A DNA stretch of 64,000 bases from Aerococcus urinaeequi (lineage in GTDB: Bacteria; Bacillota; Bacilli; Lactobacillales; Aerococcaceae): NCBI RefSeq assembly GCF_001543205.1, contig NZ_CP014162.1, forward strand, positions 1,116,001 through 1,180,000, in the 5' to 3' direction. This document shows, piece by piece, positions 59,386 to 64,000 of this stretch. The translations under genes were made by a program, and so were the position numbers. A model generated the notes under the pieces. That model worked only from the letters and a program-made list of their open reading frames with translations. It made no database searches and was not told the DNA's origin. The number at the start of each line of letters is the position of its first letter. The first letter of the stretch is position 1.

Positions 59386-60237
59386 GTGAACATTGGCACA
59401 AAATATAGAGATTTAAGAACGGAGCGAGGGTTAACCTTAAAGGATGCAACCACTGGGGAGATTTCTTATTCCCAACTCTCAAAGTTCGAACGTGGTGAAT
59501 CTAGCATCACAATTCATCATTTGGTGAACTTAGTTCATAATCTGGGTATATCCTTTTCAGAATTTATTGCTGCTATTGAAAAATTCGATAGTCCATATAA
59601 ATTATATATTGAAGAAATTGATAGTGCTTATAAACAAGGTGATATTGCTGCTTTGAAAATGATTATTCAAACTCATGAAAAATTGTACCTTGAAACCAAC
59701 CAGGTGTTGTTTAGATACAATGCTATTATGACGAAACTTTTACTAAATGATTTAACTGAGGTTGAGATTGCTGAAGCAGACAAGGTGGCCATTAGTGATT
59801 ACATTTTGAATTGTTCAATCTGGACGACTTATGAAGTGATTTTATTAGGGAATTCCCTTAGAGGATTAACAATGTCTTTACAGGACTTATTAGTCCATGA
59901 AATGGTTAAAAAACTGTCTACTCTACAAGAGACAGATGCTATCAAAAGTCACTTGCTCAGCATTCTAATCAATGTGTGCTTTGACCGTTTGCGGTCGGGG
60001 CGGACTGACGAAGTGAATGATATTATGGCAGCAATTGAGCCACAATTGAGCACAAATGCGTATTACTTTAAAAACCGTCTCTTATTCCTAAAAGGGATTG
60101 TGGCGATTGTTCAAGGACAAACAGATGAAGGTGTCGCTCAATGCCAAACAGCCATTCAAGTCTTTGAGTTATTTGACCCACCATTCGCTAAAATGCACGA
60201 AGATGAACTGAATAGCTACCTAACTATGGATGAATAA
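59386..60237 (+). CDS. Rgg/GadR/MutR-family transcriptional regulator
   Basis: A 283-residue regulator. The XRE-type helix-turn-helix occupies about residues 5-60: 'YRDLRTERGLTLKDATTGEISYSQLSKFERGESSITIHHL' in pieces, including the Rgg-type 'SKFERGES'. The rest is helical repeats (TPR-like) for peptide binding and dimerisation. The total length matches the family (about 285). The start is a GTG behind AAAGGAG. Rgg proteins bind small secreted peptides re-imported by the Opp permease, and the divergent peptide gene is the likely partner. Probable targets are the peptide gene and nearby genes to the right. Confidence 0.88.
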   Translation: MNIGTKYRDLRTERGLTLKDATTGEISYSQLSKFERGESSITIHHLVNLVHNLGISFSEFIAAIEKFDSPYKLYIEEIDSAYKQGDIAALKMIIQTHEKLYLETNQVLFRYNAIMTKLLLNDLTEVEIAEADKVAISDYILNCSIWTTYEVILLGNSLRGLTMSLQDLLVHEMVKKLSTLQETDAIKSHLLSILINVCFDRLRSGRTDEVNDIMAAIEPQLSTNAYYFKNRLLFLKGIVAIVQGQTDEGVAQCQTAIQVFELFDPPFAKMHEDELNSYLTMDE

Positions 60238-60513: not shown

Positions 60514-61089
60514 ATGAAAAGATTGCTATTGTTTTCCAGTTTAAGTGTATTTTTGATGGCTTGTGCTAATCAAACAATAGAGGAAAATGAAAGTGTGGAT
60601 GCAGAAACATCCGTAAGTAGTGAACAATCATCGAGTTCGGAGGCGTCTGAAGCCACATATCAGAGTATTGTGGAAAACTTTACTTTGGTTACGGCAGAAG
60701 AAGTCACAGATAAAATCAATAATGGCGATGCATTTTATCTATTTGCGGGTGAGGAAAATTCTCAAGACGCAACCTTGTTTGCTTCTAAACTTGAAGAAGC
60801 TTCTGCTATTTTAGAAAATCCATCTACAGCAGGAATAGAAAGTGAGATTTACTATCTGGACCTAACAGAGGTGGATGATCAAGCAACAGAAGCTTTTGTG
60901 GATGAATATGACATTGAATCAGTGCCTATCTTCCAATTCTTCGAGGGTCAGATTTACTATAGTGCCATATCAGATATTGATAGTGAAAGTATCACAGTTG
61001 AAGATATTCAATATTTCATCAATTATCCATACAGCGATGAAGATGTCACAGCAGCACCGGATGTAGAGGATGAAAATGGAGAAGCATAG
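60514..61089 (+). CDS. Lipoprotein with a thioredoxin-like domain lacking cysteines
   Basis: A 191-residue secreted lipoprotein. The signal peptide ends in the lipobox LMAC (C17). A Ser/Glu-rich linker is at about 25-50. A thioredoxin-like core follows: a strand 'GDAFYLFAGEENSQDATLFASKLEEA' where CxxC would be, then 'IYYLDLTEVDDQATEAFVDEYDIESVPIFQFFEGQ'. The latter resembles the 'V-P-T-F/I' cis-proline region of bacteriocin transport accessory (Bta) proteins. The two redox cysteines are absent, so a chaperone or binding role is more likely than redox work. GGGAGG precedes the ATG. It lies 18 bases before the LytTR gene. Confidence 0.65.
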   Translation: MKRLLLFSSLSVFLMACANQTIEENESVDAETSVSSEQSSSSEASEATYQSIVENFTLVTAEEVTDKINNGDAFYLFAGEENSQDATLFASKLEEASAILENPSTAGIESEIYYLDLTEVDDQATEAFVDEYDIESVPIFQFFEGQIYYSAISDIDSESITVEDIQYFINYPYSDEDVTAAPDVEDENGEA

Positions 61090-61107: not shown

Positions 61108-61833
61108 ATGAGAATTATATTCCTTGAAGATAGCATTTATCAGCAAGCTTACTTGAAAAAATTATCAATAAAGCTGGGCGAGCGATTTTCAATTCGTGAA
61201 AAAAACATTGTAATTACATCGAAAGTTGAAGAAGTGATTGATTGTGCAAAACACCATATTGGGCGTACCTTATTTTTTCTAGATTTAGAAATTTATGATG
61301 ATCCTATGTATGGATATAAAGTTGCAAGAGAAATACGGAAATTTGATATTTTTTCAAATATAGTAATCATTACTTCTCATAATGAGTTAATGGATCTCGC
61401 ATTTGACTATAAAATTTCGGCAATTGATTTTATTGATAAAAAAATATTACGAATTGAGGATAAAATTTTTGAAAATGTCGCAATTTTTCAGGAAAAACTG
61501 CGATTAAATTCATCTTCACCAGTACTGACAATTGATAATAAGTTTGAGTTTTTTAAAATTCCTATTTCTGAAATATTTTATATTGAGACCTCTCATGTAC
61601 CACACAAATTGCACTTAGTTGGGGAACATCAAGATATAAACTTTTATGGAAAGCTAAAAAATATATTGCTTGTAGATCCGTTATTTGTGCAGACACATAA
61701 GGCTAATGTAGTGAATGTTGCAAATATTCAACAAGTCGATAAGAAAAATCGCCGAATAATCTTCAGAAATGGTATAGAAACGAATTTAATATCAAGATGC
61801 TACTTCAATCAATTAGTGGAATCATTAAATTAA
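61108..61833 (+). CDS. LytTR-family response regulator (AgrA/ComE type), no kinase nearby
   Basis: A 241-residue response regulator. The receiver domain (1-125) has the acidic pair E7/D8 and the phospho-acceptor candidate D59 in 'LFFLDLEIYDD'. The LytTR DNA-binding domain is about 137-241: 'FKIPISEIFYIETSHVPHKLHLV', 'FVQTHKANVVNVANIQQVDKKNRRIIFRNG' in pieces. AgrA/ComE proteins drive peptide-dependent bacteriocin or competence genes. No histidine kinase is in the window, so this is an orphan or its partner lies elsewhere. Probable targets are the facing minus-strand operon and its own operon. Confidence 0.9.
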   Translation: MRIIFLEDSIYQQAYLKKLSIKLGERFSIREKNIVITSKVEEVIDCAKHHIGRTLFFLDLEIYDDPMYGYKVAREIRKFDIFSNIVIITSHNELMDLAFDYKISAIDFIDKKILRIEDKIFENVAIFQEKLRLNSSSPVLTIDNKFEFFKIPISEIFYIETSHVPHKLHLVGEHQDINFYGKLKNILLVDPLFVQTHKANVVNVANIQQVDKKNRRIIFRNGIETNLISRCYFNQLVESLN

Positions 61834-61836
61834 AAG

Positions 61837-61873
61837 AAAACGAACTTAATTTTTTATGTTAAGTTCGTTTTTT
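61837..61873. terminator. Bidirectional terminator between the LytTR gene and the facing operon
   Basis: AAAACGAACTTAA (61837-61849) pairs perfectly with TTAAGTTCGTTTT (61859-61871), with T residues beyond. Confidence 0.88.
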
Positions 61874-61917: not shown

Positions 61918-62097
61918 TTACAACCTTGTATTATCTTTTTTTCTCCATAAGTAATTCAAAATAAATGTAATAAAGGTTGGGAATAAAATTGTTGCGGCAA
62001 TTTTTAAATTAAAAGAGGATGTCCCTTTTATTATCCAAGCATAAATAACTAATATAATTAAGAATAAGATGCTTGCAATGATATAATTTTTCTTCAT
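61918..62097 (-). CDS. 59-residue hydrophobic, cationic membrane protein; candidate circular-bacteriocin immunity protein
   Basis: The frame reads MKKNYIIASILFLIILVIYA, continues through a second hydrophobic segment (IAATILFPTFITFILNYL) and ends WRKKDNTRL. It has two membrane helices and a net positive charge. TAAAGGAG stands five bases before the ATG. It is the last gene of the minus-strand operon, 10 bases after the ATPase. Small hydrophobic cationic proteins of about 50-60 residues after the ATPase gene are the immunity proteins of circular bacteriocin loci (circularin, uberolysin type). The assignment rests on context; the family shows little sequence conservation. It falls below most ORF length limits. 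Confidence 0.6.
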   Translation of the reverse strand: MKKNYIIASILFLIILVIYAWIIKGTSSFNLKIAATILFPTFITFILNYLWRKKDNTRL

Positions 62098-62107
62098 AGA
62101 TACTCCT

Positions 62108-62755
62108 TTAAGAATGTAGTTGCTGATTTTTTAAATAATAAATTTTAGATGCTAACTGATTTTGAATTTCGGTAGAATGGGAAGAAAATAAAAATATTCT
62201 CCCTGTTTCAGCCTCCTTCTTAATTAAATTAATCATAATATTTTGACTATCGTGATCTAAAGAGTTAAGTGGCTCGTCTAGTATGACCAGGGGTGTATCG
62301 ATTGAGAAAAAACAGGCCAGGGCTACCTTATATCGCATACCTAGAGAGTATGTCTCAATAAGCTGTGTATTGCTAGTATCAAAATTCAGCTCATCTAAAA
62401 ATTGAAAGACATTATCTATATATGTATTATCTTGTTTCCAAAGGTACTGAATTATTTGAATATTTTCAAGTAAAGACAACTTATCATAGAATTGGGGTTC
62501 ACTGGGGATGAATACTAACTTCTTTTTAAATTCTTCGACATTAAGTGTTGTTGTATCGACTAGAATTTTAAACTTATTTTTAGGATGAATAATCCCGGTT
62601 AAGAGTTTTAGCAGGGTGGTTTTTCCAGTTCCATTATCCCCAATAATGCAACTGATGTCTCCAGCATTCATTTGCAGATGGACGTTGTTTAGTATAGGCA
62701 TTGTGTCATAACTAAAGCTCAGGTCTGCAATTTTTATTAATTCGACGCGATTCAT
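62108..62755 (-). CDS. ABC transporter ATP-binding protein, circular-bacteriocin type (CirD-like)
   Basis: A 215-residue ATPase. Walker A is GDNGTGKTT, Walker B is 'PLVILDEPLNSLD', the switch histidine is in 'FLFSSHSTE', and the signature is degenerate (YSLGMRYK). It is shorter than most importer ATPases, as seen in bacteriocin export/immunity systems. It lies between a SpoIIM/DUF95-like membrane protein and a small hydrophobic protein. GGAGGTG precedes the ATG. Other options are a generic lantibiotic-type immunity exporter (no second EG-type permease is visible). Confidence 0.85.
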   Translation of the reverse strand: MNRVELIKIADLSFSYDTMPILNNVHLQMNAGDISCIIGDNGTGKTTLLKLLTGIIHPKNKFKILVDTTTLNVEEFKKKLVFIPSEPQFYDKLSLLENIQIIQYLWKQDNTYIDNVFQFLDELNFDTSNTQLIETYSLGMRYKVALACFFSIDTPLVILDEPLNSLDHDSQNIMINLIKKEAETGRIFLFSSHSTEIQNQLASKIYYLKNQQLHS

Positions 62756-62766
62756 TTCTTCACCTC

Positions 62767-63291
62767 CTAAAGTTTAATATTTAATCTAGATTCTATCAGA
62801 GCTGCCAATATCAATAGACAAGTTAATAAAATGAAAAAATATAAACTATATCGCAATTTTATATATCGGATTTCCACATGACGGATATTGTAGATAAATT
62901 TCTGTGTTTCAAGCGAGATACTTCCTGCCATTAAAAGGGCGATCATTTCAGGGAAAACATGGGGCAATATCCCAGTTATTAATGGGTTTACGCCATACTT
63001 ATTAAATACAGAAATAAGCACATTACCTAGAAATACACCATTAAAAATAACTATGAATGAGCTACCGATGCCAAAAGATAAATTACCTACGATGATTAAG
63101 ACTAGTGCTAATATAATATTATTTTTAAAGACATATAAAAAGGATACTGATTGAGGATTGATGCTGTATGAACTATCTTTAAAAATAATGATTCCAATCA
63201 ATAATGAGAGGATGTATAGAATAACCATGAATAGAAAGGAATCTTTAAAATAACGAAAAGCATCTGCATATTTAGATAGAAGTGTTTTCAA
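62767..63291 (-). CDS. SpoIIM/DUF95-family membrane protein (CirC-like)
   Basis: A 174-residue membrane protein with about five spans. The family core is 'FIVIFNGVFLGNVLISVFNKYG', then 'GILPHVFPEMIALLMAGSISLETQKF', which matches the LLPHG-x-(F/E)-(L/M)-x-A motif of stage II sporulation protein M relatives. These proteins are found next to the ATPase in circular bacteriocin loci. It overlaps the upstream gene by 20 bases and is followed by the ATPase after 11 bases, so the operon is tightly coupled. Confidence 0.75.
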   Translation of the reverse strand: MKTLLSKYADAFRYFKDSFLFMVILYILSLLIGIIIFKDSSYSINPQSVSFLYVFKNNIILALVLIIVGNLSFGIGSSFIVIFNGVFLGNVLISVFNKYGVNPLITGILPHVFPEMIALLMAGSISLETQKFIYNIRHVEIRYIKLRYSLYFFILLTCLLILAALIESRLNIKL

Positions 63292-64000
63292 AAATGTAAA
63301 CTCCTTTTATAAGCAATTTTTTTTCTTCACGAATTAATGCAAATGTATATGGTAAGATAAAGCCAAAATAAGCTAAGAAAAGAATATATATCAAATTCTC
63401 AGGGATAATGATGACAATGCTATTAAACAATAAAAGGTAATACCAAGGTAGAATGAGTATATTTTTCCATAAAGAATAAATTCTAAGATAAATTTTTTCT
63501 TCAAGAGAATCAGTATCATTTATGTAATTCGTACTCAACAAATTGATTAAACTTTTGCTGAATATAAATGGACTAGCCAACAAACTTAATGTATTCCCTA
63601 TAAAATAGGACCAAATTGTGATTAAAACGATCAAAGTTGAAGTGATTAAGGCTATCACAAAGTTAGGAATAAAATAAAAATTCAATAAATTCACTAAAAC
63701 AAAAGAAATTAAAATTGGTACGATGGTCATTATGAATAACAATTCTTTTTTTACAAGATATAGTTTTTCCAGGCTCGTTCCAGACAATTTGAAAAGATAA
63801 ATGCTTTGTGTATCTATATGGTAACGAAAGATGGATAAAAATTTATATTGAATTTCTTGAATAATACCAGTCACAATCACTAAAGTAATAAATACCAATA
63901 GAAAACTTTTCAATACAAGATTTTCTATATGGGTCATAAAAATAAAAGTAATCCATAAGCTCAAAATAGTTTGCGTAGAAATAAAGTAAGAGATAATATT
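63272..64000 (-). CDS. Multi-spanning membrane protein, 5' end beyond the window (CirB-like candidate)
   Basis: The frame has no stop before the right edge: the codons from 64000 inward read NIISYFISTQTILSLWITF and continue into about 230 more residues with five to six membrane helices. The TTG at 63964 has no ribosome site, so the true start is off the window. It ends inside the next gene (20-base overlap). Circular bacteriocin loci carry a large membrane protein of about 550 residues at this place. An ABC-2 permease half is the alternative. Confidence 0.65.
   Translation of the reverse strand, partial: NIISYFISTQTILSLWITFIFMTHIENLVLKSFLLVFITLVIVTGIIQEIQYKFLSIFRYHIDTQSIYLFKLSGTSLEKLYLVKKELLFIMTIVPILISFVLVNLLNFYFIPNFVIALITSTLIVLITIWSYFIGNTLSLLASPFIFSKSLINLLSTNYINDTDSLEEKIYLRIYSLWKNILILPWYYLLLFNSIVIIIPENLIYILFLAYFGFILPYTFALIREEKKLLIKGVYIFENTSI

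What the first reader, a model, noticed from the sequence alone, without database searches (positions are those of the whole stretch)
61918..64000. Minus-strand operon with the B-C-D-immunity order of a circular bacteriocin locus; precursor gene predicted just past position 64000
Seen directly: four tightly packed minus-strand genes. They are a multi-spanning membrane protein cut by the edge, a SpoIIM/DUF95-like membrane protein, a short ABC ATPase with a degenerate signature, and a 59-residue hydrophobic cationic protein with its own ribosome site. Known: circularin A and uberolysin loci run precursor, large membrane protein, DUF95 protein, ATPase, small cationic immunity protein, in that order. 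Inference: this is a circular bacteriocin (or closely related peptide) locus whose precursor gene lies upstream of 64000 on the minus strand. The sequences are diverged enough that product and group may be new.
Basis: partly seen in the sequence, partly recalled or inferred. Interest (0 to 1): 0.85.

Follow-up and report, generated by a model that had tools for sequence, protein, structure and literature searches.

The report
Circularin A-like circular bacteriocin operon
This Aerococcus genome carries a complete five-gene operon for a ring-shaped antibacterial peptide, 78% identical to the known peptide circularin A; it is a new member of a well-described family, probably acquired horizontally, and not a new kind of system.

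Summary
The window ends 1,265 bases inside the operon. In the rest of the chromosome, the cut gene completes to a 575-aa membrane protein. Directly upstream lies a 74-codon gene encoding MILAF plus a 69-residue core. The core matches the circularin A/uberolysin family far above the curated cut-offs and is identical to circularin A at 54 of 69 positions without a gap. The full order is A (precursor), B (membrane protein), C (SpoIIM/DUF95), D (ATPase), E (small cationic membrane protein), exactly the cirABCDE order. Complete homologous operons occur in Streptococcus saliviloxodontae, Anaerococcus and another genome of the same order. The two closest congeneric flanks lack the operon: one has an empty site, the other a transposase. 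So the operon and a neighbouring AgrA-like LytTR response regulator form a roughly 4.6-kb, AT-rich insertion. No second immunity transporter (cirGHI-like) was found nearby. The suggestion that product and group may be new is not supported: only B, C, D and E are diverged (best C and D relatives share 33-49%). Production, cyclization, activity and immunity are inferred by homology. Verdict: new member of a known kind; the only intact copy in 15 genomes of the genus.

The parts
63272..64000 (-). Gene B, large membrane protein, CirB position; 575 aa in full (continues beyond the edge to 64999, TTG start after GGGGG). Directly upstream and beyond the edge, at 65041-65265 in window numbering (chromosome 1181041-1181265, L002:5042-5266, minus strand), is gene A, the 74-aa precursor: leader MILAF, core VAAALGIPTAVATTVVNVILGAGTLVTVLGIISSVASGGATTIMTIGWAAFKKTVQNLAKKSMASAIAY.
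   Evidence: B; about 11 hydrophobic segments; homologues in the same slot have 541-553 aa; sequence similarity weak (hhalign E 2.7e-4, probability 41%); no Pfam or NCBIfam match. A; TIGR03651 75.1 bits and PF09221 40.3 bits; 54/69 identical to circularin A
62767..63291 (-). Gene C, SpoIIM/DUF95 membrane protein, CirC position
   Evidence: PF01944 E 9.5e-20; 43% identical to the C proteins of L005 and L006
62108..62755 (-). Gene D, ABC ATPase, CirD position
   Evidence: PF00005 83.4 bits; 33-37% identical to the D proteins of L005, L006, L063; Walker A, Walker B and SLGM signature
61918..62097 (-). Gene E, 59-aa cationic protein with two hydrophobic segments, putative immunity protein, CirE position
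   Evidence: similar 53-64 aa proteins in the same slot in L005, L006, L063, L007; no profile match over a cut-off
61837..61871 (.). AT-rich inverted repeat AAACGAACTTAA...TTAAGTTCGTTT between the convergent E and regulator genes; probable two-way terminator
   Evidence: read directly from the sequence; too AT-rich for the pattern scan
61108..61833 (+). AgrA-like LytTR response regulator, 241 aa, convergent with the operon and part of the same insertion; possible regulator
   Evidence: PF04397 47.4 bits, cut-off 22.6; AgrA model 98.9 bits, below its cut-off of 400; no close orthologue in 14 congeners, best 34%

Best explanation
The locus is a complete chromosomal circular-bacteriocin operon of the circularin A type in an Aerococcus. 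A is made as 74 residues. The 5-residue leader MILAF is removed and Val6 is joined to Tyr74 to give a 69-residue, helical, cationic ring of about 6.71 kDa. B, C and D form the membrane complex that matures and exports it, with D supplying ATP. The ring permeabilizes membranes of competing Gram-positive cells. E, perhaps helped by C and D, protects the producer. The operon arrived as a cassette with the neighbouring LytTR regulator, which may control it. Shown here: gene content, order, integrity, family membership, presence as an insertion relative to close congeners. Inferred from the family: cleavage, ligation, export, killing, immunity. Inferred weakly: control by the regulator.
For: Precursor found where forecast; TIGR03651 and PF09221 over their cut-offs; AS-48 is the best solved relative (E 1.9e-7); 54/69 core identity to circularin A, same core length, same V-A start and A-Y end. 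Core charge +4, GRAVY 1.117, calculated ring mass 6714.9 Da, against +4, 1.007 and 6771 for circularin A (PMC6131525). C is SpoIIM, present in all circular bacteriocin clusters (PMC6131525). cirABCDE made circularin A when expressed in Lactococcus lactis, with A the precursor, BCD maturation and secretion, E immunity (PMC10028692). The same A-B-C-D-E order occurs in L006 (A 78%, C 43%, D 33%), L005 (73, 43, 37%) and L063 (80, 49, 34%). Insertion: the flanks of G007 and G011 match at 69-82% and lack operon and regulator.
Against: No expression, mass spectrum or activity data. B and E are recognised by position, size and hydrophobic pattern, with weak or no sequence statistics. The exact leader cut is inferred from alignment. 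No cirGHI-like second transporter was seen within about 7-10 kb, so immunity may be weaker than in circularin A producers.
Confidence: 0.95

Rival explanations
1. Silent or non-producing copy: all genes are open, but the operon is not expressed or the product is not exported or matured.
For: A congeneric MAG (L007) holds a broken copy with only E intact, so decay happens in this genus. The only regulator in the insertion has no partner kinase beside it. Promoter-like matches are no more than chance (26 found, 27.6 expected).
Against: All five frames are open, with ribosome sites and tight spacing. Strong conservation of A against circularin A argues for selection on the peptide.
Confidence: 0.2
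2. An unrelated ABC exporter or lantibiotic-type protection transporter with a chance small frame upstream.
For: D alone scores against many ABC families, including CcmA and lantibiotic protection ATPases.
Against: The 25 best of those scores all lie far below their curated cut-offs. The precursor matches the circular bacteriocin family well over its cut-off and sits in the expected slot. C is SpoIIM.
Confidence: 0.01

Closest known systems
Circularin A (cirABCDE, Clostridium beijerinckii ATCC 25752)
   Same: Gene order A-B-C-D-E; 69-residue core with the same end residues; 54/69 identical; very short hydrophobic leader; cationic and hydrophobic
   Different: Leader MILAF instead of MFL; no cirGHI-like accessory transporter seen nearby; different host; a LytTR response regulator lies in the same insertion
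   Same: Complete A-E operons, precursors 73-80% identical, leaders of 6-7 residues by alignment
   Different: B, C, D, E diverged (C 43-49%, D 33-37%); different neighbouring regulators (TetR-like, XRE-like and Rgg-like by reading, not profile-tested)
Enterocin AS-48 and uberolysin (same family, group i)
   Same: Family profile, SpoIIM protein, ATPase, small immunity protein, presumed saposin-like ring
   Different: AS-48 has a 35-residue leader and a ten-gene cluster; the precursor shows only a moderate match to AS-48 (34 bits); uberolysin itself was not aligned here

Membership tests
Circular bacteriocin, circularin A/uberolysin family (group i) | Precursor matches the family profile above its cut-off | tested here: met
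   TIGR03651 75.1 against 30.7 bits; PF09221 40.3 against 23.6 bits
Circular bacteriocin, circularin A/uberolysin family (group i) | SpoIIM/DUF95 membrane protein and ATPase next to the precursor (criterion used in PMC8534725) | tested here: met
   PF01944 71.6 bits; PF00005 83.4 bits
Circular bacteriocin, circularin A/uberolysin family (group i) | Cationic, hydrophobic core with high pI (above 9 for group i, PMC6131525) | tested here: met
   charge +4, pI 10.2, GRAVY 1.12
Circular bacteriocin, circularin A/uberolysin family (group i) | Large membrane protein and small cationic immunity protein in the operon | tested here: met
   Met by position, size and hydrophobic segments; B homology weak by sequence (hhalign E 2.7e-4, probability 41%)
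Circular bacteriocin, circularin A/uberolysin family (group i) | Head-to-tail peptide bond in the secreted product | not testable with these tools
   Needs mass spectrometry; only inferred from homology
Circular bacteriocin, circularin A/uberolysin family (group i) | Saposin-like bundle of 4-5 helices | not tested
   Only a sequence match to AS-48 structures 4rgd and 1e68; no structure was predicted
Circularin A cluster as in C. beijerinckii | Accessory immunity transporter cirGHI near the operon (not part of the cirABCDE set expressed in L. lactis) | tested here: not met
   Flanking genes read here are flavocytochrome, FMN reductase, BioY and a biotin-ligase-like gene on one side, regulator, lipoprotein, Rgg and DNA polymerase/kinase genes on the other; the rest of the genome was not searched for one

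The most novel reading that the evidence does not exclude
The cassette is self-regulated: the AgrA-like regulator that lies in it answers to a kinase encoded elsewhere in the chromosome or to the bacteriocin itself, so that a mobile circular bacteriocin plugs into host peptide signalling.
Probability: 0.15. Interest if true: 0.45.

Novelty: new member of a known kind. Interest (0 to 1): 0.25.

Why it matters
It adds a complete circularin A-type cluster in Aerococcus; none was found described in the papers searched here (that library lacks most subscription journals). Four natural variants of one peptide (73-80% identical to it, circularin A included) with strongly diverged maturation proteins make a useful set for asking what the unknown ligase/exporter complex recognises. 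The defunct congeneric copy with only the immunity gene left is a testable case of resistance without production.

Tried and rejected
Unrelated exporter or lantibiotic protection transporter: rejected by the precursor match and by scores below cut-offs. New bacteriocin group: rejected by 78% core identity to circularin A. Plasmid origin: no plasmid record covered the operon; the DNA matches listed were to the flanking reductase genes, and the one precursor match was an Anoxybacillus plasmid at 43%. Structured RNA elements: none at Rfam thresholds. LytTR-type direct repeats upstream of A: only two overlapping 8-of-9 matches at 28 nt spacing, not convincing. Promoters: no excess over shuffles. 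The Rgg gene at 59386-60237 as a dedicated regulator: rejected, because a homologous gene holds the same place in G011, which lacks the operon. The original circularin A cluster paper (PMC201212) is not held, so CirB-CirE sequences could not be compared directly.

Full report
Observation. The four minus-strand frames are present as described. The window is positions 1116001-1180000 of a single 2,013,339-base contig, so the region beyond the edge could be read. The cut frame B completes to 575 aa, starting with TTG at 64999 in window numbering, after a GGGGG ribosome site. Forty-one bases upstream of it ends a 74-codon gene at 65041-65265, preceded by GAGAGG. Its product is MILAF followed by a 69-residue core.

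Identity of the precursor. It matches the NCBIfam circularin A/uberolysin family with 75.1 bits (cut-off 30.7) and Pfam Bacteriocin_IId with 40.3 bits (cut-off 23.6). Among solved structures AS-48 is the best relative. Against the published circularin A sequence (PMC10905743) the cores align without a gap, 54 of 69 residues identical, with the same first two and last two residues. The core has charge +4, pI about 10.2 and a calculated ring mass of 6714.9 Da.

The other genes. C is a SpoIIM/DUF95 protein (PF01944, E 9.5e-20) and D an ABC ATPase. D resembles ATPases of many other systems in profile searches, but the 25 best are all below the curated cut-offs. Its SLGM signature is shared by the homologous D proteins. 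B and E have no match over a cut-off. B has about 11 hydrophobic segments and E two. Profile comparison of B with the three homologous operons gives a weak match over its last 200 residues (hhalign E 2.7e-4, probability 41%), and in an HMM search the real sequence ranks above all shuffles and reversals, though only at E 0.26. So the assignment of B and E rests mainly on position, size and hydrophobicity.

Relatives. Complete A-B-C-D-E operons with precursors 73-80% identical occur in Streptococcus saliviloxodontae (L006), Anaerococcus sp. mt242 (L005) and a genome of the same order (L063). More distant clusters include an Anoxybacillus plasmid (43%) and others among the 18 of 399 genomes of the class over the family cut-off. 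The precursor is much better conserved than the C and D proteins (C 43-49%, D 33-37%).

Host and gain. Of 15 genomes of the genus only the window's own and one other match. The other, equal in contig length and place to the record titled Aerococcus sp. S17M_St_25, names the genus, and its copy is broken: the precursor has a stop codon just before the core and lacks its last third; B, C and D are gone; a 53-aa E-like gene with its own ribosome site follows directly. In the two closest congeneric flanks (69-82% DNA identity) the lipoprotein and flavocytochrome genes that border the operon are next to each other (G007, about 0.27 kb between them) or are separated by a transposase gene (G011). The homology stops at about 61082 and resumes at about 65641 in window numbering. 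The operon and the LytTR regulator thus form one insertion of about 4.6 kb. Its genes have 24-33% G+C apart from A (42%); the bordering genes have 37-42%. Loss in both relatives is possible in principle, but gain is simpler given the composition and the rarity in the genus.

Mechanism. Following the published system (PMC10028692), A is the precursor, B, C and D mature and export it, and E protects the producer. In circularin A, mutational work indicates that the recognition signal lies in the core rather than in the leader (same paper), which fits the conserved core and variable leaders here. A further transporter (cirGHI) is reported to take part in immunity to circularin A (PMC8538875); none is present in the neighbourhood read here. 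Response regulators and kinases near some clusters have been noted with unknown signals (PMC6131525). The AgrA-like regulator here fits that pattern, but its role is inference; the genome has candidate kinases elsewhere, a search that is not specific to Agr-type kinases.

Verdict. It is an ordinary but complete new member of the circularin A family in a genus where no such cluster was found described in the papers searched.

Noticed in passing
L007:6990-7311 (G012:C11, Aerococcus MAG): Decayed copy of the same kind of locus: broken precursor, B-C-D missing, an intact 53-aa E-like gene left; possibly immunity without production (or a MAG assembly effect).
   Followed up: partly
L061:3906-5330 (G011): A 474-aa transposase gene (ISL3-like by my reading) sits in the same gap in a congener, whose flavocytochrome gene has lost its middle (residues about 76-734).
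   Followed up: partly
window 61108-61833: AgrA-like LytTR response regulator without an adjacent kinase, inside the insertion.
   Followed up: partly
window 60514-61089: Lipoprotein with a sub-threshold match to PedC/BrcD bacteriocin disulfide isomerases; conserved in congeners that lack the operon, so probably unrelated to it.
   Followed up: partly
G418:C3:57424-58091 (L023, L031): Two precursor-like genes about 300 bases apart in one genome.
   Followed up: no
G123 (L012, L030, L032): Three separate circular-bacteriocin precursor matches in one 1.7-Mb genome.
   Followed up: no
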